Assembly: GCA_903813345.2 (NCBI GenBank)
Contig: CAIIXF020000010.1
Coordinates: forward strand, 18,301,181-18,365,180
Direction: 5' to 3'
From: Owenia fusiformis
Taxonomy: Eukaryota > Annelida > Polychaeta > Sabellida > Oweniidae
DNA: 64,000 nucleotides
Below the pieces are notes generated by a model. The model saw only the letters and a program-made list of their open reading frames with translations. It ran no database searches and was not told where the DNA came from. A program made the translations under genes and the position numbers. Of the stretch, positions 3,309 to 63,023 are shown one piece after another; the stretch's first letter is position 1, and every line of letters begins with the position of its first letter.

Positions 3309-3335
3309 TGTGCTAATTTGGGAACTACTTTTAAC

Positions 3336-11640: not shown

Positions 11641-11643
11641 ATA

Positions 11644-12520: not shown

Positions 12521-12522
12521 TA

Positions 12523-18835: not shown

Positions 18836-18852
18836 AGCTTGTTCTATATTTA

Positions 18853-25300: not shown

Positions 25301-28197
25301 AAATCTAACCGTTGTTACTACTGGTGGTGTCAGCAGCGAGCAGATCTCAGCCTCTATTCGATTCTATGGCCATGTGCCGCTGGGGCTGGTTTACCACTAG
25401 ACTACTCCGATGGAAGATCTAATCCATGTGTCGAGTTCGTAGTGCCGGCTAACTGTAAATTAAATGGAGGTAGCTTTGAACCAGAATGCAACGCAGACAC
25501 ACCGACAACTACACCAATTAATGTACCAACCACCACCACAACTGTACCAACCACAACAACAACTGTACCGACCACAACAACTGTACCAACTACCACTACA
25601 ACTGTACCAACTACCACTACAACTGTACCAACCACTACCACAACTGTACCAACTACTTCTACAACTGTACCAGCTACTACCACAACTGTACCAACCACTT
25701 CAACAACTGTACCAACTACTTCAACAAGTGTACCAGCTACTACCACAACTGTACCAACCACTTCAACAACTGTCCCAACTACTTCAACAACTGTACCAAC
25801 CACTACAACAACTGTACCAACTACTTCAACAACTGTACCAACCACTACAACAACTGTACCAACTACTTCAACAACTGTACCAACCACTACAACAACTGTA
25901 CCAACTACTTCAACAACTGTACCAACCACTACCACAACTGTACCAACTACTACAACAACTGTACCAACTACTACAACAACTGTACCAACAACTACCACAA
26001 CTGTACCAGCTACTTCAACAACTGTACCAACCACTTCAACAACTGTACCAACCACTACAACAACTGTACCAACTACTTCAACAACTGTACCAACTACTTC
26101 AACAACTGTACCAACCACTACCACAACTGTACCAACTACTACAACAGCTGTACCAACCACTTCAACAACTGTACCAACTACTTCAACAACTGTACCAACC
26201 ACTTCAACAACTGTACCAACTACTTCAACAACTGTACCAACCACTACAACAACTGTACCAACTACTACAACAGCTGTACCAACTACTTCAACAACTGTAC
26301 CAACCACTTCTACAACTGTACCAACTACTTCAACAACTGTACCAACCACTACAACAACTGTACCAACTACTTCAACAACTGTACCAACCACTACCACAAC
26401 TGTACCAACTACTTCAACAACTGTACCAACCACTACAACAACTGTACCAACAGTGCCGACAACAACGACTGAACCTAGCACAACAGCAGCACTGACTACC
26501 ACCCCTACAGAACCTACCAAAATCGTCTCCACTACAACAACAACTGTACCAACAACAAAAGCTGTATTAAACTCAGAGGTTGCACGAGGCCTGGAACTTT
26601 TAGCTATGTTTAGTTTCCAGGTATGTTGTCAACGTCTACCAACAATCTTGTCACTTCTATGTTTTTACTTTGTGTTTCATTCCCATATTAGTCATTCTAT
26701 CAGTTTTGAACCCAACGATTGTGTATAAATCGAGTTAAAAATAGTGAGGCTTCTTTGGCCTAGTATTATAGGACCGTGAATTATTTGTAGAATGAATCGT
26801 GGGAGTTTTTTCATCCATTTCGCTTTCTCATCTTATAAACACTTTAAAATACCCTTTAAAACATTTATGATTGCACCATATAATCCCAAAAAAATATTTC
26901 TCATTTTCAAAGATTACCTATGGATTAACACCCAGGTATTGTTATTTTTAAACTTCAGAGGGCTTGGAATCAATGATTACGGACGCTTTTGAATAATATA
27001 AATGCTGTTTTAAATAGGTTTCAATTAAGTGTGCCAATAATTTCTCAAATTGTGTAAATGGTACGCATTCCTTTATCCCTAAAATCGTCTCTTTGACGAA
27101 TTTCCCATAGTAGTCCAATGGTATAGTTCGAAGCAGATTTTGAGATAACAGAAAAGTTAATCATTAATACACACCTTATAGAGTAGTGATATAAACCAAA
27201 ACAACCCAATAAGGTGAAGATGAAAAACACAAGCAAAATGCATGAAAAAACTCACCCGATTCATTCTACAACTCGCGGTCCTTTAGACATCATGGAGGTA
27301 AAGTTACAATTTAAAAAAAAACCACTTAAACATGAACATGTAGAATTATGGATTAGTTCTCCCATTTGTAGTATTGACTTGGCCGATTGAGTTTATAAGT
27401 ATTCGGGAAATAATTTTAATTGTCCCCGGGAAGGTGAATTGAGAGCGGTCGAGGGTCGAAATATTACATGGTCACGTATAGCACTTGAGGTTATCTTAGA
27501 AACGTGTAACTTCACCTCACTAGGAAGGTTGAGCTACACGTTTTTAGAGATATGGTACGTGAACATTTAGAATTATGGTCCTCTATGGATTAGTTCTACC
27601 CTCCGTTGTATTTACTTGCCCGTTTAAGAATAACGGTATAAAAAATAGTTGTAACTAGTTTCTTAGAAAAGCAATTGCAATTGGACCATCATCCCGTGGC
27701 ACATAATATTACACGTTCACGTAACGTTATCTTAAAAACGTGTAGCTTAACTTCCATATTCTCCGAGAACACACGTGAAACCCTAAAAAGCAAACGCTCA
27801 ATGGTTAGCATCAAAATAAAGCCTGGGCATGAATCTATCTATAAAATATCTTGATTACTTTTAGTCGGCAGCTGAACAAAAACAACAAGAGGACGTTACT
27901 ATTGCGACGGGAACAAGTGTCCCAATTGCAGTGTTGTTAGTAACGGGTGGTGTAGTTACCGCCTTGCTATTGTATAGACGACGCAAACGCAAACAAAGCC
28001 AACAAGAACTCGAAGGAGACGAGCTCGAAGACGAAAATATGGATAAAGATAATGAATCTATTACTCCATCGCATGCATCAATTGCTTTGGAGACAAGACC
28101 ATCAAATGAAGACCATGTACCGCATCTACAAAAGCAGAGCAGTTCATGTTCGATGCCACCTGTAGAGTCTGTAGATGTTGGATTTCATTACGTATAG
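22359..28197 (+). CDS. Mucin-like single-pass membrane protein with two Cys-rich modules
   Basis: Exons 22359-22425, 23105-23323, 25269-26620 and 27865-28197 join in phase to give 656 residues. Residues 1-22 (MAFVVFGLLAVLIL...) are a signal peptide. Two homologous Cys modules follow, about 29-88 and 97-160, sharing C-x-F-x-GQ-[YF]-[LI]-RD, a C-x4-C or C-x3-C pair and YSDGxSNPC. The Cys spacing recalls chitin-binding peritrophin (CBM14) domains, but the match is loose. About 44 copies of a 7-residue TTSTTVP/TTTTTVP repeat form a Thr/Pro stalk suited to O-glycosylation. Exon 4 encodes a membrane span (about 565-583), a stop-transfer RRRKRKQ and an acidic Ser-rich tail without a known signalling motif. 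Likely a surface receptor or glycocalyx protein; the ligand is unknown. Confidence 0.85.
22848..23027. mobile_element. 180-bp MITE with about 48-bp TIRs in intron 1
   Basis: Begins CTTGTATTCGTGAATGCAAC and ends with the inverse; the arms share AACGCCTGTCGGCTACCGG. A second copy lies at 53432-53588. The centre holds another inverted pair, TCATTTAAATATGAAT and its inverse. No coding capacity. Confidence 0.88.
23324..25268 (+). other. Intron 2 of the mucin-like gene, with dispersed repeat copy B
   Basis: Bounded by gtaagt and TTTAG. The segment about 24185-24655 matches copy A at 9405-9715 word for word in several blocks but is longer. The rest is AT-rich with no exon seen. Confidence 0.7.
25530..26456 (+). 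repeat. Coding minisatellite, 21-bp unit, about 44 copies
   Basis: Unit ACAACTGTACCAACTACTTC (20 of 21 bases) encodes Thr-Thr-Val-Pro-Thr-Thr-Ser/Thr. Copies vary mostly between TCA/ACA/ACC codons, that is Ser or Thr. The period is a multiple of three, so gain or loss of units keeps the frame. It lies wholly in exon 3 of the mucin-like gene. Confidence 0.95.
26770..27282. mobile_element. MITE-like element, about 513 bp, in intron 3
   Basis: AGGACCGTGAATTATTTGTA...GAGTTTTTTCAT at 26770-26812 is the inverse of 27240-27282 over about 43 bp with few differences. The inside is AT-rich with no open frame. TTA-like bases flank it. Confidence 0.75.
27331..27762. repeat. Old direct duplication, offset about 225 bp, in intron 3
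   Basis: GAACATGTAGAATTATGGATTAG...ATATTACATGGTCACGTA...TTATCTTAGAAACGTGTA (about 27331-27520, pieces) is repeated in diverged form from about 27558 to 27755. Non-coding. Confidence 0.6.
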
Positions 28198-30376: not shown

Positions 30377-33300
30377 TTACACATCGGAATCAAAAACGGG
30401 GTTGATATAGGCATCATGTTTTACATTGATATAACTGTGTGCAATTTTACCCCAGTCGTATTCACGTTTGAATGATTGGCCAGAATATGACTGTTTCTTA
30501 TTGAGATCAGTATGGCGATGGTACATTGTTAAAGCTGACGCTTGTGTATACATATTTGTAGCAGCATCTGCCTTTCTCTCGAACAATCTTTGAAGACGAG
30601 ACCCATAACGCGACTGACTTATCCATTTTGGTTGTTGTTGTTGTTGTTGTTGTTGACTCTGCCGCACAGTGGTGGAGGTATGGAGTACTTGGTCGCGCTC
30701 TTCGATCTCCTCCAGAATATTTCTTTCCTTTACTACGATCTCTGCAAAAGTGGGTCTTTCATGAGCATCACTGTTCCAGCAAGACCACATAATCTCGTAT
30801 CTTAAAAGTCAATCAATGCAACATTATACAAAATAATGATTTAAAAATTTCGAAAGAACCGCGAGTTCATGTCATATAAGTATATTGATTGATGAACTAT
30901 AATTGATGTTTAATAAACGAATGTATCTTGACATGATTGATTTGTTAATTTTCTCAAATGTGGTCATATTTGGTCCAGCCTGTGCATGCTTACATTGTAT
31001 TAGTATTTGTCTGTAAAACCTACATTTCATTTGGTAGACTTGTTGGTTTGTCCAATCGATGTCCAGACAACACATACGACTTTATATCATATGAATCTAC
31101 ATCGGCGTATGGTGTGCCCCCTCTCGTAAACACCTCCCATACTACTACACCATAAGACCACTGAAAATGATTCAAGTCAAAATGTTTATGGCTGGATGTA
31201 TAATTTATAGTCTCAAGTGAGTGTCCGGTATACCATGATGGAATGACTTAATCGATTTTCTAACATAGTCGCTTCTTTTTGGAAGTTGATTTTGACACAT
31301 ATATCGTGAAGTATATTACCACATCAGACATGCTGCTATATTTTCCATCTCGCAAACTCTCAGCAGCCATCCATCTGACAGGCAGGGGACGAGATAGGGT
31401 TGTGTCCATGTAGTATGTATCACAATAGATGTCCCTTGACAGGCCAAAGTCAGCTATCTTTATGGTCAAATCGGAAGATACCCTGGATATAATTATATGT
31501 TAATGATAAGTGCATTTGAAATCAAATAATAAATTACCAGTAATATATCAGAAATGTATTTTCAAGTAGTTCTTATGAAGCAATATGCTGAATTTAGGTA
31601 TGTACAATCTGATTTGATTTTATCCCTACACTTATCAGGGTCGTAGCCAGCTTTTCAGTCAGGGAGGGGAGGGGGGGGGGGGCTGCGATGAGATCGCCCC
31701 CAAAAATTGGTTTTCAGTCAGGGGAGGGGGTGCGATTGTGAAATAAACAAGGCAAAAAATTAGATTTATTTTTGAATGAAGAAGCTTCAAATAAAAAGCA
31801 TTTAACTGTTTAAAAGCTATTTTCTTCTTTTTTTCTCATGGTTTTATTTTTTATTGGTTATGGCCACATAAGGAATTATTTCTCTCATTGTGATATAATT
31901 TATCATATGAGGTAGGAAATAATCCACACGTGGGATCCTAATTATTTATCATTCAGTTTGTCATGTAAAGGATTGGTATCGATAAGGTGAACTGAATTCA
32001 ATGACGTTTTTATGCTAAACTAATTGTTGAAAAAATTATAGTATTACCATTAAAAGAATGACGATTAAATTGACAATGTGAAAATTCACCATATCGATAC
32101 CAATCCTTTACACGATGACCAGATACAGTGACACATTTGAAACTTACTATATAGTAATATTTTCTTTTAAACATGCCTACGCAGTGACAGGAATAGGTAC
32201 CTGTGTATATGTGATTTCGGTAATGGACTTATGTAAACTAATAAACGAGGTCATTGCTTTTTGAATATTTTCCAATAGATAACTAAAGCATCAATGATAA
32301 CTCACATACAGTTTCTTGCTGCTAAATCCCTGTGTACAAATCTTTTATACGCAAGATACTCCATCCCACTGGCTACTTGAAGACAAAAGTTAAACAACTC
32401 CAGTGTGCTAAATACCTAGAACATAAAAGATAAAAGGTAAAGTTGGAATTTTGAATATCTTCCCTTGATCTGCTCAGTTGCTAATTGGAGAGAACATAAC
32501 AATTCGTGTTGGTGTTATTAATTTATTTTAATATTAAATAATTAAAATAATATCAATTAGCAAGTTTGGTAGTTATATCTGAACACAAATATCGATCTTG
32601 AACTAAAGGGAAGTAGACTTACATGCTTTTCATCCTGCACATACGATTTTAAATCTTTGTTAGCCATATGGGGGAGTATGACATACGGGATATCATTGTC
32701 CAGGGCAACTCCAATCAGGTTCAGGACATTTGGATGCTCGAAATCCTTCATAACCAAGGCCTCCTTCATGAAATCTGAGAGATCGTTTTCAGAGCAATTT
32801 GACTTTTTGATAGTCTTTATTGCTACATCTTGGTCGTGTACGATTCCTTTGTAAACAATGCCAAATTGACCTGTTCATGAATAAAAAATGTCGTTTTGTG
32901 AAAACAAGCTTTAGATTGGTTAATTCCACCAAAAAAATATGTCTATATATAATACATTAAAGCTGCACTATACTTAAGTTAGAAGAAAAATAAGAAAATA
33001 ATCATTGAAACATGTTACTCACACACTTGCTCAAATATGACACAAAGTTTGATTTGCTTTAATATTGAATCAAGAAAACAATAACTCAAATAGGAAAAAG
33101 CATTTGAATTTCTGAGATCATTAGACATGCATGCACATGTTAAACAAAGTGCATATTTCAAATTACTATTGATTTAAAAGATGGCGACACTTCTATAAAA
33201 ATGAATGTATCATGTAATACAAACAACTTCGCCATCTTTCAATGACATTGATAAAACCTTGATATATAAATCTTGAAAGATCAAAAATGTTTTTTGATAA

Positions 33301-36300
33301 TTTATTGTAAGCTTTGCTGTGGTCCATTTGAGCTGTTGTTGGAGTCAAATGAAAGATATGTCTTTTATCAATGCATTGGTCATACTATGAAATTTAAATG
33401 TAAGTCTTTATTTTGCCCAAAAAAGTTCAAAATTCCCAAAGTGGGCCTTTAAGTTATAAGCATTGAAGGAGATAACTACAAATTGACTTTTAAATTTACC
33501 TTGTCCAAGTACCTCTTCTATTTCAATGTCACTGTATTGTAGCTTTCTATCTCCAAGCATTGTAAACAAGGCATCACCAAGAGCTGATAACTTAATACGA
33601 GAGTCAACTATAACAGAAGGTAACATTTAGCACTATTGCAGACAAGTAAGATAGTTAGTATGAATATGTAAAAATACAGATATTAATTGAAGCTTTAAGC
33701 TTGGAGTGACAAATTGAAGACTTATAAATACATATAGCTATGGTGTGCCTACCATATTCACCGTCATCTCCTAGCACTGTCATATTTATGAACCCCATCT
33801 CTTTTAACTTGCGTTGCTTGCATCTTCTTACAGTGCATACTGTTACCACAGTAAGTAAAAGGAATGCAGCGGCTGACAAAGATACGATCAATACCATGGG
33901 AACATATCTTACGTGACCAACTGCATACTGTCTTCCAGTGTCTCCTACTCGTGCCTTGGAAAATAAGTGCCAAATAATCACTCAAAATACATTAACGTTT
34001 AATGTCGGTAATCTTTGGACGCAGTGTTGTTTTGGGGACCCTGATGAGGGGTAAAGCCTGCTTAAAGTACAGTGGATGGAGCTCCCATCAGAAATGAAAT
34101 AAAACTGTTGCATAAAATCGCTTTGGTTTGTGCATCGTATTTCCTTATGAAGCATTCCAAGAGAAGGTTTTACAACACGTTTAGATCTAGAATGAGGCTA
34201 AGGACGCAATATAATAATAACAATGGTTCAAATATTTTTACCATTGTGTATAGTGACAAATCTGGTCCTGCTCCAAGTTTTCCATACCCTGGTTCTTCAT
34301 CCGGAAGCTTACATATCAACTCCCTTGCAGTGAGCAGTTGTATTTTACATACTCCATCCCCAACCTGGACCTGCATATCTTCTGCACTGACACCTTCAGA
34401 GGGAGTTGTCACCTGGAATGAGTTGTTAGTTTAGAACTATATTATATAATCAGAGCCAGAAGTATGATTAAAAGTTAATTAATATTTGATATAAATGATA
34501 TTCTCACCGGTATCGACAAGGTCATTTTCCGGAACCAAGTGTTAGCGTAAAATACACCATTTAACCTTCCAAGTTCAAGGTCTGGGAAAACTTGCAATTG
34601 GGTGTTGGTGCTATTGGGCAGTGCTTCTGTAAGATTTTTAAATGTTTTGACACCATCCAGACGGAGTCCACTCCAGAAACGTGTTCTTGAAAGTGCTGTA
34701 GTGACATTTTGCCCTGTGATATTCACGATGTCATTTACGACTTTACTCAAGTTTGGTACTGGACAATTCATCAACTCCATACTTTGAGTAGTACAGACCT
34801 ACAAATTAAACATCCACATATTTGTAGGGAAAATAAAACCAAGAACGTCTATCTCGAGATAGAACACACTACTATACCTTGCATTTGGCTTTCATGAGCA
34901 ACCCATTTGGCTTATTAGTAATGATTATATATTTGTTTTTATTTGTCTGTTCCTTATTAATGGTTTATCGGTTGAAAGTTAGATGTTGATAAGGTACTTT
35001 CAAAAATATACTAAACAATCCAATTAGACAAACAAAGTATCTTATGCATTTCAAGTTGTTAGGTATGGTAGTGTGTAGAAGTACTTGCTAAAACATAACA
35101 CATTATACTGAGTATTAACTTCATTCGAGTATACAAAGTAATCAAACCATGCTTTACCTGTTTAAGATTTGATTGGACAAATGTATTTTCATACTGTACT
35201 TCAATTGTTATAACAGGGTCACTAACAGACGTGAGGTACCTCCCAACTATAGCGATGTTAACACCGCCACTGAAATGCAAATTCAAAAGCTAATTGAGGA
35301 CTAAGCGACTTTGATGTTCCAAGGATGTCATCGATGTGAAATGACCAACTAATAAATGAAGAAAATATCTTTATATACTGAAACAAACCAGCCAAAGACA
35401 AAAAAACAAGATGTAAAAAATTAATTACAGGTTCAGTGAATTGAACCTGGGACCTCTCAGTCACTCGTCCCATTATCTACTGCTGAGCTATAAATGCCAA
35501 AAAGGAATGGACATTCATGATCAGTAGTAGCAGATTGCTTTCCAGGATGGTAGCATAAATAAATCATAAATGGGCATGTACCATTTTTTCCTAAGAGTGG
35601 AGTGTGTATAATGTATACTCCACTAGACATTATTTCAACATTAGATAAGATCGACAAATTGGCGAGGCAAATTACAAAGACAAGGCAAATCTTGAGCCAA
35701 AGATGATTCTATAGTTCTACAATACAATCAATAGGACATAATCCACATCGTTCGAGTAGAAAACCATAGCAGATATAGTAAATGTACCTGACAGGGGACC
35801 TGTTGTTTAGTACTTCAATAACCACTGGATTCTCCATATATGTATATGTTGAGTTTACATTATCAAGGGTGCGGTTTAGTTTGGCGAAATCGAGATATAC
35901 TTCAATTTTTCCACGACCAGTGACCTCCGAACGTTGTGCGCTACAGTTTACTATAGATGTCATGCCATCTGCCTCGGTCGTATTGCTACAAACATATGCA
36001 TTTAGTAGTCAAAACGGTGCCGTCAAAACTGTCTCGCAATTAGACTGAATGACAAATGAATGACAACTGTTCTGCCGTTAGAATCATTAAGTTCTTACCT
36101 AGTGATGTTACATGGCACTCCAACAACATTTACTGTAACCACTGTTTCATGAAGTCTAATGTGTTGCAGTTCAATGCTGATCATGGTACCTCCCGCCATA
36201 GGACCAAAATTGGGGTAAATATGCGCGATATAGGGAGCCTTAAATATAGATAATCATGGTAATATATAGGCTCATTGGAAGCTTAGATATGGAATATACA

Positions 36301-39300
36301 AAACAAAATCTTTTTTTCAAAATCTTGATTACCAAGTCAATACTATTGTATACCTGGCTTTGAAATTAAGCCCAAAACTGAGTTCTGATAGACCAAGAAC
36401 AGGAAGTAATGGATGTAGTTGACAATAATAGAAAAATGCAAACGTGCAGTCTAATGGTCTTATGACTAAATTGTTGATGTTGGTGAAATAATTTAATAAT
36501 AACTTGCTTGATATTCTAGAAACAAGAACATCATTATCTTTCTCTCTTGCTTGGTTGATTCTTAAATGAGAAATAATAGTACTTACAAATGTGCATTCGG
36601 CGACACTTGTTGCACCAGGATAAGTGGCTGCATGTATACCGTGTCTATCTCCAGGACATCGTGTACATGGTTGCCTCCCATGACTGTCCTTATAGAATCC
36701 AGGCTGGCATGGAACACACCTCTCAGAAGGACCCTCAGGTGCAAAACCACTTTGACAGCCTCTAGGATATTTAGAAGTTGTGGTTGATAGTGTCGTCGTT
36801 GATGTTGTTCTTGTCGTGGTGGTAGTTGATGTTGCCGGCGTTGTTGTGGTAGCGTGATATGTAGGGGTTGAAACTGCAGTTTTATTAGGAGTTGCATTAC
36901 GCAAAGTCGTTTGTACAGTGGCGGTTGTATGGTTCAGATAAAATGGTCGAGTTGTTGTATGATTCATATGAAATGGTCCAGTGGTTGTATGATTCAGATA
37001 AAATGGTCGAGTGGTTGTTTGATTCAGATGAAATGGTCGAGTTGTTGTATGATTCAGATGGTATGGTCGAGTTGTTGTATGATTTAGATGAAATGGTTGA
37101 GAAGTTGTATGATTCAGATGAAATTGTCGAGTGGTTGTATGGTTCAGATAAAATGAATCGGTGGTATTCAAATACGTATAAAATGGCCGTGTGGTTGTTT
37201 GATTCTGATGGAATGGTTCGGTGGTAGAATCATTCAGATGAAATGGTCGAGTGGTTGTAAAAAATGGATCAATAGTGGTATCATTCAGAGTAAATGGTTC
37301 AGTGGATGTATCATTCAGAGTAAATGGTTCAGTGGATGTATCATTCAAATTAAATGGTTCAGTGGATGTATCATTCAGAGTAAATGGTTCAGTGGATGTA
37401 TCATTCAAAGTAAATGGTTCAGTGGATGTATCATTCAGATTAAATGGTTCAGTGGATGTATCATTCAGAGTAAATGGTTCAGTGGATGTATCATTCAGAT
37501 TAAATGGTTCAGTGGATGTATCATTAAGAGTAAATGGTTCGGTGGATGTACCATTCAGAGTAAATGGTTCAGTCGATGTATAATTCAGAGTAAATGGTTC
37601 AGTGGAAGTATCATTCAGAGTAAATGGTATGATGGATGTATCATTCAGAGTAAATGGTTCGGTGGATGTATCATTCAGAGTAAATAGTTCGGTGGAAGTA
37701 TCATTCAGAGTAAATGGTATGATGGATGTATCATTCAGAGTAAATGGCTCGGTGGATGTATCATTCAGAGTATATGGTTCAGTCGATGTATCATTCAGAG
37801 TAAATGGTTCGGAGGATGTATCATTCAGAGTAAATGGTTCAGTGGAAGTAAAATTCATAGTAAATGGTTCAGTGGATGTATCATTCAGAGTAAATGGTTC
37901 AGTGGATGTATCATTCAGAGTAAATGGTTCAGTGGAAGTATCATTCAGAGTAAATGGTTCAGTGGAAGTAGCATTCAGATTAAATGGTTCGGCGGATGTA
38001 TCATTAAGAGTAAATGGTTTGGTCGATGTATAATTAAGAGTAAATGGTTCGGTGGAAGTATCATTCAGAGTAAATGGTTCAGTGGAAGTATCATTCAGAG
38101 TAAATGGTTCAGTGGATGTATCATTCAGAGTAAATGGTTTGGTGGATGTATCATTCAGAGTAAATAGTTCGGTGAAAGTATCATTCAGAGTAAATGGTTC
38201 AGTGGATGTATCATTCAGAGTAAATGGTTCAGTGGAAGTAGCATTCAGATTAAATGGTTCGGTGGATGTATCATTAAGAGTAAATGGTTCGGTCGATGTA
38301 TAATTAAGAGTAAATGGTTCGGTGGAAGTATCATTCAGAGTAAATGGTTCAGTGGATGTATCATTCAGAGTAAATGGTTCGGTGGATGTATCATTCAGAA
38401 TAAATGGTTCGCTGAAAGTATCATTCAGAGTAAATGGTTCGGTGGAAGTATCATTCAGAGTAAATGGTTCGGTGGATGTATCATTCAGAGTAAATGGTTC
38501 GGTGGAAGTATCATTCAGAGTAAATGGTTCAGTGGATGTATCATTCAGAGTAAATGGTTCAGTGGATGTATCATTCAGAGTAAATGGTTCGGTGGATGTA
38601 TTATTCAGAGTAAATGGTTCGGTGGACGTATCATTCAGAGTAAATGGTTCGGTGGAAGTGGAAGTCGATGTATCATTCAGAGTAAATGGTTCGGCGGATG
38701 TATCATTCAGAGTAAGTGGTTCGGTGGATGTATCATTCAGAGTAAATGGTTCGGTGGATGTATCATTCAGAGTAAATGGTTTGGTGGACGTATCATTCAG
38801 AGTAAATGGTTCGGTGGAAGTATTATTACGAGTAAATGGTTCAGTGGATGTATCATTCAGAGTAAATGGTTCGGTGGAAGTATTATTCAGAGTAAATGGT
38901 TCGGTGGATGTATCATTCAGAGTAAATGGTTCAGTCGATGTATCATTCAAAGTAAATGGTTCGGTGGATGTATCATTCAGAGTAAATGGTTCGGTGGAAG
39001 TATCATTCAGAGTAAATGGTTCAGTGGATGTATCATTCAGAGTAAATGGTTCAGTGGATGTATCATTCAGAGTAAATGGTTCGGCGGATGTATCATTCAG
39101 AGTAAGTGGTTCGGTGGATGTATCATTCAGAGTAAATGGTTCGGTGAAAGTATCATTCAGAGTAAATGGTTCGGTGGAAGTATCATTCAGAGTAAATGGT
39201 TCGGTGGATGTATCATTCAGAGTAAATGGTTCGGTGGAAGTATCATTCAGAGTAAATGGTTCAGTGGATGTATCATTCAGAGTAAATGATTCAGTGGATG

Positions 39301-42300
39301 TATCATTCAGAGTAAATGGTTCGGTGGATGTATCATTCAGAGTAAATGGTTCGGTGGACGTATCATTCAGAGTAAATGGTTCAGTGGATGTATCATTCAG
39401 AGTAAATGGTTCGGTGGATGTATCATTCAGAGTAAATGGTTCGGCGGATGTATCATTCAGAGTAAGTGGTTCGGTGGATGTATCATTCAGAGTAAATGGT
39501 TCGGTGGAAGTATTATTCAGAGTAAATGGTTCAGTGGATGTATCATTCAGAGTAAATGGTTCGGCGGATGTATCATTCAGAGTAAGTGGTTCGGTGGATG
39601 TATCATTCAAAGTAAATGGTTCGGTGGATGTATCATTCAGAGTAAATGGTTCGGTGGACGTATCGTTCAGAGTAAATGGTTCAGTGGAAGTATTATTCAG
39701 AGTAAATGGTTCAGTGGATGTATCATTCAGAGTAAATGGTTCGGCGGATGTATCATTCAGAGTAAGTGGTTCGGTGGATGTATCATTCAGAGTAAATGGT
39801 TCGGCGGATGTATCATTCAGAGTAAGTGGTTCGGTGGATGTATCATTCAGAGTAAATGGTTCGGTGGATGTATCATTCAGAGTAAATGGTTCGGTGGACG
39901 TATCATTCAGAGTAAATGGTTCGGTGGAAGTATTATTCAGAGTAAATGGTTCAGTGGATGTATCATTCAGAGTAAATGGTTCGGTGGAAGTATTATTCAG
40001 AGTAAATGGTTCGGTGGATGTATCATTCAGAGTAAATGGTTCAGTCGATGTATCATTCAGAGTAAATGGTTCAGTGGAAGTATTATTCAGAGTAAATGGT
40101 TCGGTGGACGTATCATTCAGAGTAAATGTTTCAGTGGAAGTATTATTCAGAGTAAATGGTTCAGTGGATGTATCATTCAGAGTAAATGGTTCGGCGGATG
40201 TATCATTCAGAGTAAGTGGTTCGGTGGATGTATCATTCAGAGTAAATGGTTCGGCGGATGTATCATTCAGAGTAAGTGGTTCGGTGGATGTATCATTCAG
40301 AGTAAATGGTTCGGTGGATGTATCATTCAGAGTAAATGGTTCGGTGGACGTATCATTCAGAGTAAATGGTTCGGTGGAAGTATTATTCAGAGTAAATGGT
40401 TCAGTGGATGTATCGTTCAGAGTAAATGGTTCGGTGGAAGTATTATTCAGAGTAAATGGTTCGGTGGATGTATCATTCAGAGTAAATGGTTCAGTCGATG
40501 TATCATTCAGAGTAAATGGTTCAGTGGATGTATCATTCAGAGTAAATGGTTCGGTGGATGTATCATTCAGAGTAAATAGTTCGGTGGAAGTATCATTCAG
40601 AGTAAATGGTATGATGGATGTATCATTCAGAGTAAATGGTTCGGTGGATGTTTCATTCAGAGTAAATGGTTCAGTGGAAGTATTATTCAGAGTAAATGGT
40701 ATGATGGATGTATCATTCAGAGTAAATGGTTCGGTGGATGTTTCATTCAGAGTAAATGGTTCAGTGGAAGTATCATTCAGAGTAAATGGTTCAGTGGAAG
40801 TATCATTCAGATTAAATGGTTCAGTGGATGTATCATTAAGAGTAAATGGTTCAGTGGATGTATCATTCAGAGTAAATGGTGCGGCGGATGTATCATTCAG
40901 AGTTAGTGGTTCGGTGGAAGTATCATTCAGAGTAAATGGTTCGGCGGATGTATCATTCAGAGTAAATGGTTCGGTGGATGTATCATTCAGAGTAAATGGT
41001 TCGGCGGATGTATCATTCAGAGTAAGTGGTTCGGTGGATGTATCATTCAGAGTAAATGGTTCAGTGGAAGTATCATTCAGAGTAAATGGTTCAGTGGATG
41101 TATCATTCAGAGTAAATGGTTCAGTGGATGTATCATTCAGAGTAAATGGTTCAGTGGAAGTATCATTCAGAGTAAATGGTTCAGTGGAAGTAGCATTCAG
41201 ATTAAATGGTTCGGTGGATGTATCATTCAGAGTAAATGGTACGGTCGATGTATAATTAAGAGTAAATGGTTCGGTGGAAGTATCATTCAGAGTAAATGGT
41301 TCAGTGGATGTATCATTCAGAGTAAATGGTTCGGTGGATGTATCATTCAGAGTAAATAGATCGGTGAAAGTATCATTCAGAGTAAGTGGTTCGGTGGAAG
41401 TATCATTCAGAGTAAATGGTTCGGTGGAAGTATCATTCAGAGTAAATGGTTCAGTGGATGTATCATTCAGAGTAAATGGTTCGGTGGATGTATCATTCAG
41501 AGTAAATGGTTCGGTGGATGTATCATTCAGAGTAAATGGTTCGGTGGACGTATCATTCAGAGTAAGTGGTTCGGTGGAAGTATTATTCAGAGTAAATGGT
41601 TCGGTGGATGTATCATTCAGAGTAAATGGTTCGGTGGACGTATCATTCAGAGCAAATGGTTCGGCGGATGTATTATTCAGAGTAAATGGTTCAGTGGATG
41701 TATCATTCAGAGTAAATGGCTCGGTGGAAGTATTATTCAGAGTAAATGGTTCGGTGGATGTATCATTCAAAGTAAATGGTTCGGTGGAAGTATCATTCAG
41801 AGTAAATGGCTCGGTGGATGTATCATTCAGAGTAAATGGTTCAGTGGAAGTATCATTCAGATTAAATGGTTCGGTGGAAGTATCATTCAGAGTAAATGGT
41901 TCAGTGGAAGTATCATTCAGATTAAATGGTTCAGTGGATGTATCATTCAGAGTAAATGGTTCGGTGGAAGTATCATTCAGAGTAAATGGTTCAGTGGATG
42001 TATGATTCAGAGTAAATGGTTCGGCGGATGTATCATTCAGAGTAAATGGTTCGGTGAAAGTATCATTCAGAGTAAATGGTTCGGTGGAAGTATCATTCAG
42101 AGTAAATGGTTCAGTGGATGTATCATTCAGAGTAAATGGTTCGGCGGATGTATCATTCAGAGTAAATAGTTCGGTGGAAGTATCATTCAGAGTAAATAGT
42201 TCGGTGAAAGTATCATTCAGAGTAAATGGTTCAGTGGATGTATCATTCAGAGTAAATGGTTCAGTGGATGTATCATTCAGAGTAAATGGTTCGGTGGATG

Positions 42301-44629
42301 TATCATTCAGAGTAAATGGTTCGGTGAACGTATCATTCAGAGTAAATGGTTCGGTGGAAGTATTATTCAGAGTAAATGGTTCGGTGGAAGTATCATTCAG
42401 AGTAAATGGTTCAGTGGATGTATCATTCAGAGTAAATGGTTCGGTGGATGTATCATTCAGAGTAAATGGTTCGGTGGATGTATCATTCAGAGTAAATGGT
42501 TCGGTGGACGTATCATTCAGAGTAAATGGTTCGGTGGAAGTATCATTCAGAGTAAATGGTTCGGCGGATGTATCATTCAGAGTAAATGGCTCGGTGGATG
42601 TATCATTCAGAGTAAATGGCTCGGTGGATGTATCATTCAGAGAAAATTGTTCGGTGGATGTATCTTTCAGAGAAAATTGTTCGGTGGATGTATCTTTCAG
42701 AGTAAATAGTTCGGTGAAAGTATCATTCAGAGTAAATGGTTCGGTGGAAGTATCATTCAGAGTAAATGGCTCGGTGGATGTTTCATTCAGAGTAAATGGT
42801 TCAGTGGAAGTATCATTCAGATTAAATGGTTCGGTGGAAGTATCATCCAGAGTAAATGGTTCGGTGGAAGTAACATTCAGAGTAAATTGCTCAGTGGATG
42901 TATCGTTCAGAGTAAATGGTTCAGTGGATGCATCATTCAGAGTAAACGGTTCAGTGGATGTCTCGTTCATATAAATCGTAGTGTCAGCCAATAACACGCC
43001 AGTGGTATTCGTTACAGGATTTGGTGCAGTGGCATTGATATCAACCAAATATGCAGTTGTTTCAGTAGCATTCATAGAAGTAGATGAAACGGTAGTATCA
43101 GTCATTGAAGCAGTAGTTGCAGCAGTTGTACTCTCGGTGATACCTTGAAATAAAAGCGAATATGTTAAGACATAGAGTTCTAAGGTAGGCTGGTCTATTC
43201 GAAGATAGACTCTGTGGGATACTCAAACGAAGTGCCTAGTTTAGCAATCACACACGGTGGTGGCAATATTGCATCATACGGTTGCAGCAAAAATCCTGCA
43301 TCTTTCAGTATATACAAACACAATCGCTGAATAAACGGCAATGGCGACGAACAGAAATTAGTACAAGGTATTAACATGACAACATGTCACCACCTAGTTG
43401 CTCACAGTATTAGTTCAATCATAAGTCAGATTTGAATTTCTGAAAACTTGTACAGGATTTTGAAAAAATGGTCAATTTGAAGCAAGATGAAAAAATACCT
43501 TTTAGACCTCGAGAAGGTCATTGAAGGTCAATTCTTTTTTTGCCCTTGAGAATGTCATTGAAGGTCAAATCTATAGTCAAATTTGAACTGTTGAGAACTT
43601 GTAGATGATTTTGAAAAAATGAATTCGTCAATTTCAGAGTAAATAATTCAGTGGATGTATCGTTCAGATAAAATGGATAAGTGGAAGTATTAGTAGTAGT
43701 GGTTCAGTTGATGTATCGTTCCAATGAAATGGTATCAGTGGAAGTATCGTTCAGAATAAATGCATTGATATCAGCCAAAGATGCAGTTGTTTCAGTAGCA
43801 TTCATATAAGTAGATGACGCGGTAGTATCAGTCATTGACGCAGTAGACCTTTTGACCTTGAGAAGGTCATTGAATGTCAAATCTATACTCAGCTTTGAAC
43901 TGTTGAGAACTTGTAGATGATTTTGAAAAAATAAATTCGTCAATTTGAAGAAAGTTGAAAAATACCTTTTGACCTTTTTGAACTTGAGAAGGTCAATTCT
44001 CAAATTTAAAGTTAGATTTGAAGTTCTGATAACTTGTAGATGATTTTGAACATGTAGATGGTTTTGAGTCAGTCTAAACAGTATTTGTTTAGTTATTGGA
44101 AGTTGTAAGAATTTGTTACATATGCCAATCGCCAACCACCAACCGTCGTCAAAAATCGGAGACCATAACAATATGTCACCACTTTTTGGTGGTGACATAA
44201 TGACGCAACGCTACACATTATATACGAAAGCTACCCAGAACTGTTATGTGTTGAGATAACTAGGTTAACATCGGGAAAAGATTGAGTGTTATTTAAGTAA
44301 CTTTGTCCCACGTAATGGTACAGTCTAATGAGCAAAACTGGCCTTGTATTCCGAGTATTTTGTAACTTTTTGGGAGCCATGTCCTCCCCGCCTGCCATTT
44401 TGAAATAGACACCGTGCATAGGTGGCACACGGTTGAGTACCGGTTCGTGGTAGATACCATTATCAGAGGTTGTAAAAATGATATGCCATGAAGCAGACGT
44501 GGTGTTTCCTCACCTCGTAAGGAATAAGAGCAAATGGAAACATATCATCAACAAGAATGTTATTCATACTTTACCTAATAAGGCAGATGCATTTATAAAG
44601 ATCAGTATTATTCCGTAGTTCCCATTCAT
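30377..44629 (-). CDS. MET-like receptor tyrosine kinase with a giant glyco-repeat ectodomain and IPT domains
   Basis: Fourteen exons join in phase (high to low): 44629-44575, 43143-36587, 36238-36099, 35985-35788, 35269-35158, 34798-34508, 34412-34242, 33954-33753, 33607-33500, 32870-32623, 32415-32306, 31482-31320, 31160-31024, 30800-30377; 8916 bases, 2971 residues. Signal peptide 1-18 ([18 protein letters not shown]). About 79-1979: some 190 [10 protein letters not shown] repeats. Then [10 protein letters not shown]-type repeats and a Thr tract. A GCC2/GCC3-like Cys module lies at about 2145-2204. From 2205 come IPT-type segments ([12 protein letters not shown]..., then [10 protein letters not shown]). 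Membrane span about 2526-2550. Kinase: GQGQFG 2610-2615, VAIK K2630, Glu 2648, HRDLAARN with D2724, DFG D2742, activation loop [28 protein letters not shown] and VILPHM resemble MET. No Sema domain is seen. The Q8 tract and two YIN motifs end the tail. Confidence 0.9.
30624..30653 (-). repeat. CAA microsatellite encoding polyglutamine
   Basis: A TTG run on the plus strand reads as eight Gln codons on the minus strand in the cytoplasmic tail of the receptor kinase, just after the kinase domain. Confidence 0.9.
31630..31745. repeat. GTAGCCAG-type repeat fragment in a kinase intron
   Basis: CAGGGTCGTAGCCAGCTTTTCAGTCAGGG-type start (about 31637-31665), a poly-G run, then a second TTTTCAGTCAGGGGAGGGGG. 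It is related in its end to the GTAGCCAGG MITE family. One arm only; probably truncated. Confidence 0.5.
31972..32114. mobile_element. Short TIR element, AAAGGATTGGTATCGATA family
   Basis: TAAAGGATTGGTATCGATAA on the left and TATCGATACCAATCCTTTA on the right, about 143 bp, with no coding content. The ends match those of the longer inner element at 57419-58165. It lies in the intron between the exons carrying HRDLAARN and DFG. Confidence 0.82.
34868..35078. mobile_element. Dispersed 212-bp TIR repeat, copy A, in a receptor intron
   Basis: CACTACTATACCTTGCATTT ... AGGTATGGTAGTGTG, with inverse ends. Copy B at 52111-52320 is about 90 percent identical by eye along its whole length. Confidence 0.85.
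35281..35498 (-). mobile_element. tRNA-derived SINE remnant
   Basis: On the minus strand TAGCTCAGCAGTAGA (35476-35490) fits an A box and GGTTCAATTC (35438-35447) fits a B box, 30-40 bases apart as in a tRNA. The stems do not pair well, so it is a SINE head and not a working tRNA gene. The body runs toward 35281. Confidence 0.55.
36920..37262 (-). repeat. Diverged 30-bp coding repeats, [10 protein letters not shown] type
   Basis: About eleven units of 10 residues in which STEPFTLND has become TTRPFHLNH. The N-H-T sequon is kept in most units. This is an older block at the membrane-side end of the main array in the same exon. Confidence 0.9.
37262..42970 (-). repeat. Giant coding minisatellite, 30-bp unit, about 190 copies
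   Basis: Unit encodes [10 protein letters not shown] on the minus strand; with the next Thr each unit has an Asn-Asp-Thr sequon. The frame never breaks over about 5.7 kb. Variants include Ala for Thr, Leu for Phe, Asn for Asp and Ile-Ile for Thr-Glu. One unit near 38655 has a two-codon insertion (6 bases). A segment of about 390 bp from 39691 is repeated 450 bp further on with about one difference over the first 330 bases, showing recent block duplication. All copies lie in exon 2 of the receptor kinase. Confidence 0.95.
43144..44574 (-). other. Intron 1 of the receptor kinase, with duplicated intron blocks
   Basis: A block with GACCTYGAGAAGGTCATTGA and AACTTGTAGATGATTTTGAA occurs at about 43431-43640 and again at about 43853-44060, on either side of the decayed exon copy. 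The remainder has no exon. Confidence 0.75.
43630..43850 (-). pseudogene. Decayed duplicate of the start of the receptor repeat exon
   Basis: The minus strand reads [20 protein letters not shown] then [16 protein letters not shown], nearly the same as the true exon start ([20 protein letters not shown] then VDINAT). After a few repeat-like units the frame is lost. With the flanking duplicated intron blocks it shows that an intron-plus-exon segment was duplicated and one copy degraded. Confidence 0.8.
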
Positions 44630-45655
44630 TGTCAACGAAAAATAAAGTCACCCAATTGCAGTGTAGGAATAAAGCGTTATGTAATTTACATTTTCATGAT
44701 TTCCTTCTAAATGTGTAAATACATTTAGTCATCATAAAATTAAAAGTTAGGTTATGTTGATGGAGGAAATACTTAAAATACTGATTCAAGATAAACCATT
44801 TAAAACTATTATTATTAAGGAACAAAGAAATTCCGATTTGGCCGATGGGAATTAAAAGTAAAAACAAAAAATATATACTTTCTCCTACGTGTTCCTCCTA
44901 AGTAGGCAAAAACCATGTATTTCCATTATTTTACGTGAAGATGGCGAGACTAATATTACCCTGTTTATCCAAATTCAACATTTGAATGAGTTTGATACAA
45001 ACTTCAATTTTTCTTATGAGTCTTTTTGATGATGGCATGGGAATATTAATATTAAAAGAATCTTGGATCAAAATGGTTTTTATATGCAACATTAATGACA
45101 ATTTTGCATTTGTCACTAAATTATTATGTAGATTATGTAAATTATTATGTTTTATTGTGTGTCCATCATAACTACCGGTAACTATGATCAATATAGATGA
45201 CTTGGTGTATTCATATGTTGATGTTTTGACGCACGAGGAAAGATGTTCTTAAAAAGATTATATAACTTGATATCCCGTAGTTGAGTAAATTGCGACCCAA
45301 ATGTGACCAGATATGTTCCTTAAAACATCATGCGTCCTTGATGTTATCACAAGGAAACTCAGTTCGAATATATGAGGAAAAAACATTGTCACTTCGATAA
45401 GGTATATATCAAAGAAGTGATTAATGCATATCCGGAAATAATTCCAGCGACATTGCATCGCTTGATGTTTTTAACTGTTTTGCTAGGATTTAGGCAATGG
45501 CCAATTTAATTAAGGGCAATTTTAACTACAAGTTTTATCTACCGAAGCTTGACACTTCTTGGCTATTTTACGTCAGAAAGCTGTCATATCTAAAAAGGTC
45601 AAAAATAAAAGTTGATAAAATATTAAAATTAAAAAGGATTTAATCCCTGGACTCA
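44630..45655. other. Upstream region of the receptor kinase gene
   Basis: AT-rich, with no coding exon seen. It is the start of the 3.4-kb head-to-head spacer between the receptor kinase (-) and the type II membrane protein (+). I see no clear promoter motif. Confidence 0.4.
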
Positions 45656-46036
45656 GTGCATTGTGAACTGATTATCATTCCTCAAAGGTATTGTTGCACG
45701 AGATGCGTAGCACCGAATGCTAAGTTTAGGAAACAATGCCCAAGTGGAATAAATCAGCCACAATGCAATGATCGTCTTGGGGTGAATTTATTTTCACATA
45801 TTGCAAAATATTTTCTACGATATCACGTAAAAGATACGAAATCACTAATAAAACATATTTTCTGTAGGGTCAAGATCACCTTGCCAACTGTTGAACACTT
45901 ACTATTTGACCTGCATGCGCACTTGTCTTATTATATGTTACTATTTATAGATTTTTACTCCGGCAACTATGAAATTTATCAGCTTTTCACTAGTTTCACT
46001 GGAGTTTACGGAATGTTGGTGACACACCTTGCCTAA
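45656..46036 (+). pseudogene. Possible LINE tail fragment
   Basis: A 126-codon frame contains HIAKYFLRYHVKDTKSLIKH followed by FCRVKITLPTVEHLLFDLHAH. The TVEHLLFDxHAH run loosely recalls the ETxxHLLxxC tail of LINE proteins, but the second Cys is missing. Weak evidence. Confidence 0.22.
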
Positions 46037-46039
46037 CTT

Positions 46040-46905
46040 TGTGTGAATACTCAATACTTTAGGGGCGTTCGAAAAGTTTGTATCATTTTGCTCTGTATCA
46101 CCGGGGCCAAAACATCGTCATTAAAGAATTAAATAGTTCTTGTTGCTTGTTGACGATGTTGCTCAAATACGTTTGGTTTGGTTCGCTCGCATTCAACAAA
46201 GAAGTATAGATGTCAGGATAATATATGTAAGATACGGTAATACCTTCAGATTAAGCTCGGTTGGAACTTGAATTAATCAACCAATGAGTTCTTTGGCATG
46301 GAACGTAGTGTATAATGTTAAATGCAATTTTATAATTGTATAGTATTATTGCAAATCAGAAAAAACATTGTATGGTATCTCATTGAATAAATCTAAGAAT
46401 AAATAGCTTTAAAAAATTATTATTTTATTGACACGCAAAAAATATTTTTCATAAACATTTTTTATTGAATTAAAACACTAAATGTAGTATACACGTTCCA
46501 GATCCATTTGTGTGTGTGGGAGGGGGAGTATGCTGAAAATTAAACTGCAAACTGAAATTATCAAAACAATTATATCACTGTAACAATTATACGAAATCTA
46601 AAGTTAGACAAAACCAGGAATATAAAAAACGCATGGAATAATATTTGAAGAATAAAAGGAAACCGTATGAAAAAATAAAAAATAATATGAAGGGTGAATA
46701 GGACTCTGAAATTGAAAAAACATTTGATAACTTCTTAATTGTTATGTATGTGAGAAAACCTCTAATAATCCTACTTTATATTGCAGCAACACATTCGGGT
46801 ATGCTTTGAAATATATACCTAATCTTAAGGTGGAATTGCAAATAGAGAGATTGGACTGTTGGTTTACATCTAGGATAGCAGCAACAATTCTATTACAGGG
46901 CCAGG
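46040..46905. other. Spacer, AT-rich
   Basis: Starts with AGGGGCGTTCGAAAAGTTTG, which resembles a transposon end, but I found no inverse partner. No gene is seen. Confidence 0.35.
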
Positions 46906-46908
46906 TCT

Positions 46909-47407
46909 CACTGGCGGATTCAGGGGAGGTGGGGGTATGGCCTCAAAATGGGCTTTTTTTGGGCAGAATTTGGCTGTTACATATTCAAAATTTGGGCCCA
47001 ATTTTTGATGATAGAGGCCTAATTTTTTTTCCTAAATCAAAATTTGGGCCCCCCTCCGGCCCTCCCCTTTGTAGCTTCTGAATCCGCCAGTGGATCTGGA
47101 AATTGACAACCTCCACAGGTATCTGTTTTATATGTCTCTGTACAGGCATACAAACCATCCAGGAACCAACAGGGGGGGGGGGAGGGGGCACATAAGAAAT
47201 CTGAAAAAATATTTGGGCGCCTAGAACCAAAAAGTGGGCCCAAATTTCAAATTTTGAAAATCTAAGGTCCATTTTCCTGATAATTTGGCCTAAAATTCAA
47301 AAAGAAGGTCTGAAAAGGCACATTTTTGTCTATAAAGACCCACTAAACGGGACTTTAAAAAAGTTTTGGGCCCAATTCCTTTCTGCTCCCCCCCAGATCC
47401 GCCAGTG
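46909..47407. mobile_element. CACTGGCGGAT-family MITE, one copy plus a partial inverted copy
   Basis: CACTGGCGGATTCAGGGG at 46909 and CTGAATCCGCCAGTG ending at 47092 bound one copy. A further ...AGATCCGCCAGTG end at 47407 bounds a second, longer segment with poly-G and GGGCCCAAATTT words shared with the first. Non-coding. Confidence 0.75.
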
Positions 47408-48053
47408 CAAACCGATCGCGAGTTCTCATCGTAGCTTTTTTAATATCAAATATACAATGATTCTTAAATATCGCCAACAGAGACTATCAGGTGCAGTTTT
47501 CAGATCACGTAACAACATTTGTAAACGAACAAGCTTGTAAAAGCTTTAAAATGTTCGAGCAGGGACTCCTCGCTGATTTAGTCAAATACAAGTAGAGTTT
47601 TCTTACGAACAGAAACCACATACTGCCTTCATTGTAGTTGCTACTAGAGACTCCTGAAATTATAAGAGATCACAATATATTACAAGTTATTAATTTGCAA
47701 TAATAGCACAATGATAATACAGATGGTTTTATATTGACTCTATTCGTATAGTTTTACATACAAATAAATGTTTGTGGTAAACTACTAGATAGATTTGAAG
47801 GAAGTTTATGAAGCTCAGTCAATTTATCGAATCTTTGGAATGGGCAATCTTATAACTTACTGAGCTATAGGTAACACGCTTAGCTTCTTAATAATCCGTG
47901 AGCATCTGTAGGTCTCGGAGATCAGTCAGACACCCTTGATCGATAGAGTGTACCGAATAACTTCATACCATGTATCTTCGACACGATTGGTTCAAAGTTT
48001 AGTTTCTGGTCACGTGGTCTATAGCAGCAGACGATCTTTATCACTTCTTCAAA
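47408..48053. other. Upstream region of the type II membrane protein
   Basis: No open frame of note. TCACGTGGTCTATA at about 48010-48023 holds an E-box (CACGTG) 40 bases before the start codon. The promoter role is inferred from position alone. Confidence 0.35.
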
Positions 48054-48425
48054 ATGGATGGAAAGGAAACGAGCAGGACTTATGTTCTTCACATTAGAAT
48101 TCTTTATGGTTGTATATTAACGTTATCACTATCGACATTTTGTGCGTTGTGGATATGTTTTTCTGAAATACATAATCTGAAACTTCGGTGCGATTTTCTA
48201 AGACAGAAAAATGACAATTTCGCTGAATTTATCAATGTTGACAGTACACAACCAACGTTTACACAGACTGCCACTCATAATGAAGATGAAGGCATGTTTG
48301 ATGTTAATGATCAGACTGTAAGACAGAGGAATAAAAGGTCTATACAACTAAAAGATCTAATGGAGGAAGGTTCCGGGGATGACGACCAACAATGGGTGTG
48401 GATGTCAGCATATTCTAGAATTCCG
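48054..48425 (+). CDS. First coding exon of a type II membrane protein with a furin site
   Basis: ATG at 48054; 124 codons to a donor CCG/gtaggt at 48425, phase 0. Residues about 15-37 (RILYGCILTLSLSTFCALWI) form an uncleaved signal anchor after a short cytoplasmic head, with a Leu/Lys-rich juxtamembrane stretch after it. RQRNKRS (about 92-98) is a consensus furin cleavage site, followed by an acidic segment with SGDDD that could carry a glycosaminoglycan, then WVWMSAYSRIP. This plan (type II span, stalk, furin site) is shared by TNF-family ligands such as ectodysplasin, and by gliomedin and transmembrane collagens. Which it is depends on later exons, which I cannot place; no Gly-x-y stretch is seen to 64 kb. 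If not spliced, the frame would end at 48491. Confidence 0.6.
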
Positions 48426-48491
48426 GTAGGTTTTACAAACATTGCTTATTTGCAGAAATTGAGTTATTTGACAGTGAGGTTTGACAAGTAG

Positions 48492-51400: not shown

Positions 51401-51715
51401 ATATACGCCGTGTTCCTTTATTTTAAAGCACACAAAAAGTTGAAAGTAGGAAAACAACCACTGAGACCACCAATCACATAGGCTAATGATAAAGCAACAG
51501 AAACAGCATCAGTATACAGGTCCGTAGCCAGAGGGGGAGCTGGGGGAGCGGAAGCTCCCCCCCTGGTCAGAACTGAATTCTTTTAAAATCATGCAGTTTT
51601 TCACCATTCTGAGAATTTTTCGCATGAATTTTAGCCAAAATTGTGAAAAAGCTCCCCCCCCTGGAAAAAAGCCCCCCCCTGGTAAAAGCTGGCTACGGGC
51701 AAGAGTATATGTAGT
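48492..51715. other. Long intron or spacer with no supported exon
   Basis: AT-rich. An open frame on the minus strand at 49519-49725 and one on the plus strand at 50959-51156 were examined and match nothing I know. The GTAGCCAG-family element at about 51520-51708 ends this stretch. Confidence 0.4.
51520..51708. mobile_element. GTAGCCAG-family MITE, second copy
   Basis: CAGGTCCGTAGCCAGAGGGG at the left, AGCTGGCTACGGGCAAG at the right, with ATCATGCAGTTTTTCACCAT inside as in the ARL15 intron 3 copy. Confidence 0.78.
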
Positions 51716-51718
51716 TAA

Positions 51719-51879
51719 GGAATAAATAATGATAGGCCATTCAATATGGTGAAATTCAGCACGAGTTGGACAGAATGTTGTACAAAGCACGAACCGAAGG
51801 TGAGTGCATTTGTACTAACATTCTGTCCAACGAGTGCTGAATTTCACCATATTGAATGGCCTATCATTATTTATTCCGA
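51719..51879. mobile_element. 161-bp palindrome with 60-bp arms
   Basis: GGAATAAATAATGATAGGCC...GGACAGAATGT at 51719-51778 is matched in inverse at 51820-51879 with one or two differences; the loop is about 41 bp. Such fresh arms indicate a recent insertion. The following 51880-52078 is bounded by GATTCAAACAT and its inverse, perhaps a second element or an outer pair. Confidence 0.85.
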
Positions 51880-52110
51880 TTCAAACATAAAAATTAGTAA
51901 AAGCCGTGTCTGTGGAACGGGCATGAAGGAAGAATACGCATGAGATGTGACGTCACTCAAAACAATGCAAATTGCAGATTGAATAGAGCATGGTCGTGCA
52001 TCTATGGAGAATTAGAGAACGTTCTATATTGGCTATGCTGCATTCTGATTGGTTGAGAAATTCGAATAGAGCACGGTCATGTTTGAATCTTTGATAGACG
52101 TTAATCACTC

Positions 52111-52320
52111 TACTATACCTTGCATTTGGTGTTCATGAGCAACTCATTTGGCTTATTAGTAATGATTATGTATTTGTTTTTATTTGTCTGTTCCTTATGA
52201 ATGGTTTATCGGTTGAAAGTTAGATGCCAGTAAGGCACTTTCAAAAATATATTAAACAATTCAATTAGACAAACAAAGTATCTTATGCATTTCTAGGTGT
52301 TAGGTATAGTAGTGTGTAAT
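52111..52320. mobile_element. Dispersed 212-bp TIR repeat, copy B
   Basis: Same sequence as 34868-35078 with scattered changes, ends CACTCTACTATACCTTGCAT and AGGTATAGTAGTGTG. No coding capacity. Confidence 0.85.
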
Positions 52321-57345: not shown

Positions 57346-57348
57346 GCA

Positions 57349-61825: not shown

Positions 61826-61829
61826 ATTT

Positions 61830-63020: not shown

Positions 63021-63023
63021 ATA

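What the first reader, a model, noticed from the sequence alone, without database searches (positions are those of the whole stretch)
30377..44629. MET-like receptor tyrosine kinase whose Sema domain is replaced by a giant glyco-repeat stalk
Seen: 14 exons join in phase into 2971 codons with a signal peptide, about 190 ten-residue repeats, a Cys module, IPT-like segments, one membrane span and a complete tyrosine kinase. Known: MET/RON receptors have Sema-PSI-IPT ectodomains. Here the kinase ([31 protein letters not shown] loop) and the IPT part are MET-like, a GCC2/GCC3-like module sits where PSI would be, and no Sema propeller is visible. Inference: a MET relative that lost, or never had, the HGF-type ligand-binding head and uses an extended glycosylated stalk. 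I know of no described receptor with this layout.
Basis: partly seen in the sequence, partly recalled or inferred. Interest (0 to 1): 0.92.

Follow-up and report, generated by a model that had tools for sequence, protein, structure and literature searches.

The report
Sema-less MET-like receptor with glycan stalk
A gene, by all signs from an animal, appears to encode a cousin of the MET growth-factor receptor in which the part that grips the growth factor is missing and a very long, probably sugar-studded repeat rod stands in its place; this rests on a gene model, not yet on RNA.

Summary
I rebuilt the same 14-exon minus-strand model (2,971 codons, 13 GT-AG introns in compatible phase). Pfam finds an Ephrin_rec_like (GCC2/GCC3-type) module, three TIG stretches and a tyrosine kinase; no Sema or PSI. 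The array is 189 ten-residue units, 185 with an N-glycan sequon; 218 sequons lie in a Cys-free stalk of 2,122 residues.

TIG1 and TIG2 match human MET IPT2 and IPT3 in that order (z 10.7, 13.9); the third is only weakly IPT4-like (z 1.9). MET homology thus begins at IPT2. The kinase is closest to MET but joins MET+RON at only 70% support.

Weak points: no transcript, no taxon; exon 1 is no better than background; a Sema split over small exons, or beyond the window, is not excluded. Since Sema is the published criterion for Met RTKs and is not found, I call it a Sema-less MET relative: a new variant of a known kind.

The parts
44575..44629 (-). exon 1: start codon and putative signal peptide [19 protein letters not shown]
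   Evidence: only candidate in 43.2-64 kb at set cut-offs, but background 16 per 73.5 kb; inference
36587..43143 (-). exon 2: Thr-rich lead-in, 189-unit array, diverged older units, Thr-rich linker, Cys module, one open frame of 6,557 nt
37280..42961 (-). [10 protein letters not shown] array, 189 units, 185 followed by an intact NxS/T
   Evidence: tandem-repeat rows
36920..37279 (-). older diverged units ([10 protein letters not shown] type), 11 sequons in 120 residues
36587..36760 (-). Ephrin_rec_like (GCC2/GCC3-type) Cys module
   Evidence: Pfam PF07699 E 9.7e-08, 2.7e-07; coordinates
35829..36238 (-). TIG1 (exons 3-4), matches MET IPT2
   Evidence: z 10.7
34688..35828 (-). TIG2 (exons 4-6), matches MET IPT3
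   Evidence: z 13.9
33898..34684 (-). third TIG-like segment before the membrane (exons 6-8), weakly MET IPT4-like
   Evidence: hhalign colinear; z 1.9 only
33829..33897 (-). transmembrane helix
   Evidence: read from the sequence; coordinates
33537..33828 (-). short juxtamembrane, KLSALGDAL aligned with MET DLSALNPEL; no DYR (Cbl) motif
   Evidence: BLASTP 36% over 44 aa, E 0.002 (includes the start of the kinase); alone z 1.6; no DYR
30713..33536 (-). tyrosine kinase (exons 9-14)
30398..30433 (-). C-tail twin-tyrosine motif [12 protein letters not shown]
   Evidence: pattern in 0 of 200,000 shuffled tails, but the pattern was written after seeing the tail; MET YVHV/YVNV in PMC5344233 (passages)
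43633..43846 (-). partial, stop-bearing duplicate of the 5' end of the array, in intron 1
   Evidence: (74.8% over 242 nt), frames

Best explanation
A MET-related receptor tyrosine kinase, by inference of an animal, that keeps IPT2, IPT3 and a third IPT-like segment, the membrane span, the kinase and a twin-tyrosine docking tail, and carries a Cys module plus a Cys-free stalk of 2,122 residues with 218 sequons instead of Sema-PSI-IPT1. Shown here: domain order in the model, no Sema/PSI in it, MET register of TIG1 and TIG2, the tail motif. Inferred: with no recognised folded domain at its tip, the stalk itself is the sensor or the gate. My commitment: the glycan brush keeps receptors apart; multivalent lectins (self or microbial) that bridge the repeated glycans, or cleavage of the stalk, bring the IPT/kinase stubs together, the kinases trans-phosphorylate and YINV/YINP recruit SH2 adaptors as in MET. 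Identity part about 0.75, mechanism part about 0.35.
For: Model and domains; MET is the best single-kinase hit, 264.5 bits against 246.5 MER, 232.0 AXL, 230.3 RON, 228.7 TYRO3; MET is the best ectodomain hit, E 5.6e-11; colinear hhalign to MET 621-1095, E 9.2e-10, and BLASTP to MET 657-805, E 1.6e-13; IPT register and docking motif; sequon kept in 185 of 189 units and 11 sequons in the 120 diverged residues; no Cys in residues 20-2141. Precedent for lectin bridging of a mucin that promotes activation of a receptor kinase: galectin-3/MUC1/EGFR (PMC5635220, abstract).
Against: No RNA, no relative, no taxon. Exon 1 and hence the 5' end are weakly supported. RON scores below MER and AXL, and the MET+RON grouping has 70% support with 8 sequences. 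Plexin-A1 nearly equals MET on the ectodomain, 2.2e-10. Third IPT weak (z 1.9), juxtamembrane weak alone (z 1.6). Sequons and Thr are not proof of glycosylation. Nothing here tests lectin binding or cleavage.
Confidence: 0.5

Rival explanations
1. The 5' end is incomplete or chimeric: the mucin exon belongs to another transcript, or Sema exons lie beyond the window (or in small exons I could not see) and are spliced in.
For: Exon 1 no better than background; the donor at 36587, which joins the stalk to the TIG exons, scores 3.9, the lowest of 13 in my matrix; the stop-as-X Pfam scan missed the split TIG exons in the control stretch, so a split Sema could be missed too.
Against: 0 families at E<=0.1 in six translations of 44,635-64,000 minus and in three of 43,000-44,640; tblastn of MET Sema-PSI against the window has three hits only, best E 4.8, while MET IPT finds exon 3 at E 0.007 and exon 5 at E 1.0; repeat and Cys module share one exon and run in phase into TIG1.
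Confidence: 0.2
2. A kinase from the MET/AXL neighbourhood joined to plexin-type IPT domains independently of MET, as proposed in print for Met-LPs in two lineages.
For: AXL and MER identity 45.1% against MET 48.2%; plexin-A1 almost equals MET on the ectodomain, 2.2e-10 against 5.6e-11; PMC6374515 argues for independent kinase gains (passages).
Against: Docking-type tail and a colinear match from IPT2 into the kinase.
Confidence: 0.15
3. Same receptor, but the stalk is only a steric spacer or protective brush and an unknown ligand binds the Cys-IPT part.
For: IPT3-like and IPT4-like segments are in place; binding of the HGF N-terminal region to MET IPT3-4 has been reported (PMC5344233, passage).
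Against: Not tested. The sequon kept in 185 of 189 units fits both readings.
Confidence: 0.3

Closest known systems
MET / RON (HGF and MSP receptors)
   Same: IPT2-IPT3 register, order IPT-TM-kinase, MET is best kinase hit, twin-tyrosine tail of YxxV/YxN kind
   Different: No Sema, PSI or IPT1 found; no R-x-K/R-R site in the ectodomain; short juxtamembrane without DYR; 2,122-residue stalk and Ephrin_rec_like module
Met-LP RTKs (PMC6374515)
   Same: tyrosine kinase under plexin-type ectodomain domains in invertebrates
   Different: Met-LPs have a complete plexin ectodomain; here neither Sema nor PSI is found. That survey used presence of a Sema domain as key criterion (section 15 read), so it would not have listed a receptor like this
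AXL/MER/TYRO3
   Same: kinase 43-45% identical
   Different: Ig-Fn3 ectodomain there (recalled); IPT here
Transmembrane mucins (MUC1)
   Same: tandem Thr/Ser-rich repeats on a single-span protein
   Different: an N-glycan sequon in nearly each unit here (185 of 189) and a kinase inside
Eph receptors
   Same: PF07699-type Cys module; EphA2 a weak hit, E 0.73
   Different: no ephrin-binding domain listed; EphB1 kinase 207.4 bits, below MET

Membership tests
MET RTK | Sema domain (key criterion in PMC6374515) | tested here: not met
   model; surroundings; limited for split exons (control) and beyond 64 kb
MET RTK | PSI domain | tested here: not met
   Pfam lists Ephrin_rec_like and no PSI
MET RTK | four IPT domains | tested here: not met
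   two clear (IPT2, IPT3), one weak (IPT4), no counterpart of IPT1
MET RTK | MET/RON-type kinase | tested here: inconclusive
   best hit MET, tree support 70% with 8 sequences
MET RTK | twin-tyrosine docking site in the tail | tested here: met
   [11 protein letters not shown]; tyrosines 8 residues apart instead of 7; motif only, phosphorylation not tested
MET RTK | alpha/beta cleavage site | tested here: not met
   no R.[KR]R in the ectodomain
MET RTK | Cbl site DYR in the juxtamembrane | tested here: not met
MET RTK | binds an HGF-type ligand | not testable with these tools
Met-LP | complete plexin ectodomain | tested here: not met
Transmembrane mucin | long Ser/Thr-rich repeat region on a single-span protein | tested here: met
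Transmembrane mucin | dense glycosylation | not testable with these tools
Eph receptor | ephrin-binding domain | tested here: not met

The most novel reading that the evidence does not exclude
A receptor tyrosine kinase whose sensor is a glycan array rather than a protein fold: a MET relative that traded Sema-PSI-IPT1 for about 190 N-glycan units and reads lectins, microbes or the state of the glycocalyx through multivalent bridging or stalk loss.
Probability: 0.3. Interest if true: 0.8.

Novelty: new variant of a known kind. Interest (0 to 1): 0.6.

Why it matters
The main survey of Met evolution that I found selected sequences by their Sema domain (PMC6374515), so Sema-less relatives fall in a blind spot. 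If real, this receptor shows that the IPT-kinase half of MET can be kept while its ligand head is replaced, which separates what the IPT part and the docking tail do from HGF binding, and it offers a natural case of mucin-like stalk and kinase in one chain.

Tried and rejected
Sema upstream on the minus strand: six translations with stops read as X, Pfam at E<=0.1, 0 families; three more over intron 1, 0 families. Control on 30.3-36.65 kb: kinase found in 3 of 3 frames, but neither TIG nor the (cut) Cys module, so I weigh this as moderate. tblastn of MET Sema-PSI against the whole window: three hits, E 4.8, 7.2 and 9.9; the second lies in intron 1 next to exon 2 (35 residues, 31%); all taken as chance. 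Opposite-strand gene over the array: long frames exist, best omega-like value there 0.50 against 0.30 in the model frame, and no known domain was looked for on that strand of the array; rejected on the codon test alone.

Exon 1 as independent proof: dropped after the background count.

Own genome: none held. Rfam: 0 families at gathering score. Relatives in the genome, viral and phage/plasmid collections were not searched (prokaryotic or viral), and no metagenome scan is allowed. Structure prediction was not used: it admits window proteins, and I did not want to hand in a spliced product whose admission is unclear; no alignment of relatives exists. In the PDB ranking I set aside 9p9u_A, one chain with two EGFR kinases whose sum tops the list (about 169 bits each); 60 of 828 rows were shown.

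Paper searches for a Sema-less Met or a TIG/GCC2 receptor kinase. I saw listings only, 25 of 130, 5 of 5, 15 of 26, 12 of 189, 10 of 20,381 (terms too broad to use), 12 of 12, 15 of 75 and 20 of 39 papers; none of the titles or abstract starts shown describes such a receptor. Searches searched HGF-binding sites and glycocalyx. Oyster kinome PMC4883820: 12 of 37 places, no occurrence of IPT, Sema or hepatocyte growth factor in the main text. Holozoan tyrosine kinome PMC8662651: 12 of 40 places.

Full report
What is there. On the minus strand 14 exons (44629-44575, 43143-36587, 36238-36099, 35985-35788, 35269-35158, 34798-34508, 34412-34242, 33954-33753, 33607-33500, 32870-32623, 32415-32306, 31482-31320, 31160-31024, 30800-30377) join in phase into 2,971 codons; 13 of 13 introns are GT-AG, 95 to 1,431 nt long. 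The organism is unknown; introns plus this domain set point to an animal (inference).

Domains. On the 830 residues after the stalk Pfam lists Ephrin_rec_like, three TIG stretches and PK_Tyr_Ser-Thr, plus only weak sub-threshold names, nothing Sema- or PSI-like at E<=1. Exon 2 as a whole, 2,185 residues, gives Ephrin_rec_like alone at E<=0.1. PDB sequence search: the kinase is best with human MET (264.5 bits; MER 246.5, AXL 232.0, RON 230.3, TYRO3 228.7; a chain with two EGFR kinases on top set aside); the TIG part is best with MET, 5.6e-11, then plexin-A1, 2.2e-10.

Relation to MET. hhalign of the membrane-proximal ectodomain and juxtamembrane against MET 560-1095 gives one colinear alignment to MET 621-1095, E 9.2e-10 (single sequences); BLASTP core MET 657-805, 28%, E 1.6e-13. 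Domain by domain (300 shuffles each), TIG1 prefers IPT2 (z 10.7; next IPT1 6.6) and TIG2 prefers IPT3 (z 13.9; next IPT2 6.4); the third segment prefers IPT4 but only at z 1.9 (MET domain limits from PMC5344233, passage). So clear homology starts at IPT2. The kinase tree (8 sequences, IQ-TREE LG+G4) puts the window with MET+RON at 70% ultrafast bootstrap; identities MET 48.2, AXL and MER 45.1, RON 43.5, TYRO3 43.1, FGFR2 41.4, EGFR 37.4%. The tail ends [19 protein letters not shown]; a pattern made to cover the MET and RON docking sites (the RON site recalled) occurs once here and in 0 of 200,000 shuffles. I wrote the pattern after seeing the tail and widened its gap to include it, so the shuffle count overstates the surprise.

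Stalk. Residues 20-2141 hold no Cys, 611 Thr, 200 Ser and 218 of the 230 extracellular sequons. There are 189 regular units, 61 distinct at DNA level and 34 at protein level. The residue inside the sequon varies (D 159, N 16, Y 4, E 3, A 3, and V, H, F, G once each), while N stays in 186 and the leading T in 188 of 189 units. The 120 diverged residues after the array still hold 11 sequons. At a recalled 0.25 nm per residue for a glycosylated mucin the stalk could reach about half a micrometre (inference).

Is Sema really missing? Not in the model; no Pfam family in six upstream translations to the window end or in intron 1; no convincing tblastn match to MET Sema-PSI. Limits: the same Pfam scan missed the split TIG exons, the tblastn control was itself weak (exon 3 at E 0.007, exon 5 at 1.0), and a far upstream exon is possible. 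Exon 1 is unremarkable against background.

How it may work. In the MET/HGF structure HGF is held by Sema (PMC8249616, passages; IPT3-4 not resolved there). Here no Sema is found, and no folded domain is recognised at the tip. A brush of glycans would give two controls: spacing of receptors, and many identical handles for lectins. Galectin-3 binding to MUC1 promotes EGFR dimerization (PMC5635220, abstract). A MET variant lacking parts of IPT1-2 is constitutively active although mostly cytosolic (PMC4469304, abstract), which at least shows that MET kinase can be active with an altered ectodomain. From this I infer bridging- or cleavage-driven activation; no step of it is shown.

Novelty. The listings show no description of such a receptor (only parts of the larger result sets were displayed; numbers in Tried and rejected). 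The main survey required Sema (PMC6374515 section 15). Animal protein databases could not be searched, so an annotated but undescribed relative may well exist.

Noticed in passing
window 23074-28194 (+): Possibly a second single-span mucin-like gene nearby: two Cys-rich segments of one type (frames from 23074 and 25238), a VPTTTTT array (25522-26451) and a membrane span with basic tail (27865-28194); no Pfam hit over the Cys segments. Not shown to be one gene.
   Followed up: partly
window 43633-43846 (-): Degenerate, stop-bearing copy of the start of the repeat exon inside intron 1, a trace of array turnover.
   Followed up: partly
window 15386-18952 (-): 1,189-residue uninterrupted frame with a TNP-like RNase H domain (E 6.3e-08), probably a P-element-like transposase.
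   Followed up: partly
window 11642-12522; also 22848-23027, 51719-51877, 63843-64000: Palindromic (foldback, MITE-like) elements, 78-91% self-complementary.
   Followed up: no
window 34865-35077 and 52106-52318: A 213-nt dispersed repeat, 92% identical, one copy in intron 5 of the receptor gene.
   Followed up: no
window 48003-48488 (+): 162-residue frame that reads like a type II membrane protein with an RNKR site; no Pfam hit at 0.01.
   Followed up: no
window 2286-3371 (-); 6354-8498 (+): A Sel1-repeat/MYND-finger gene and exons of an Arf-like GTPase gene.
   Followed up: partly
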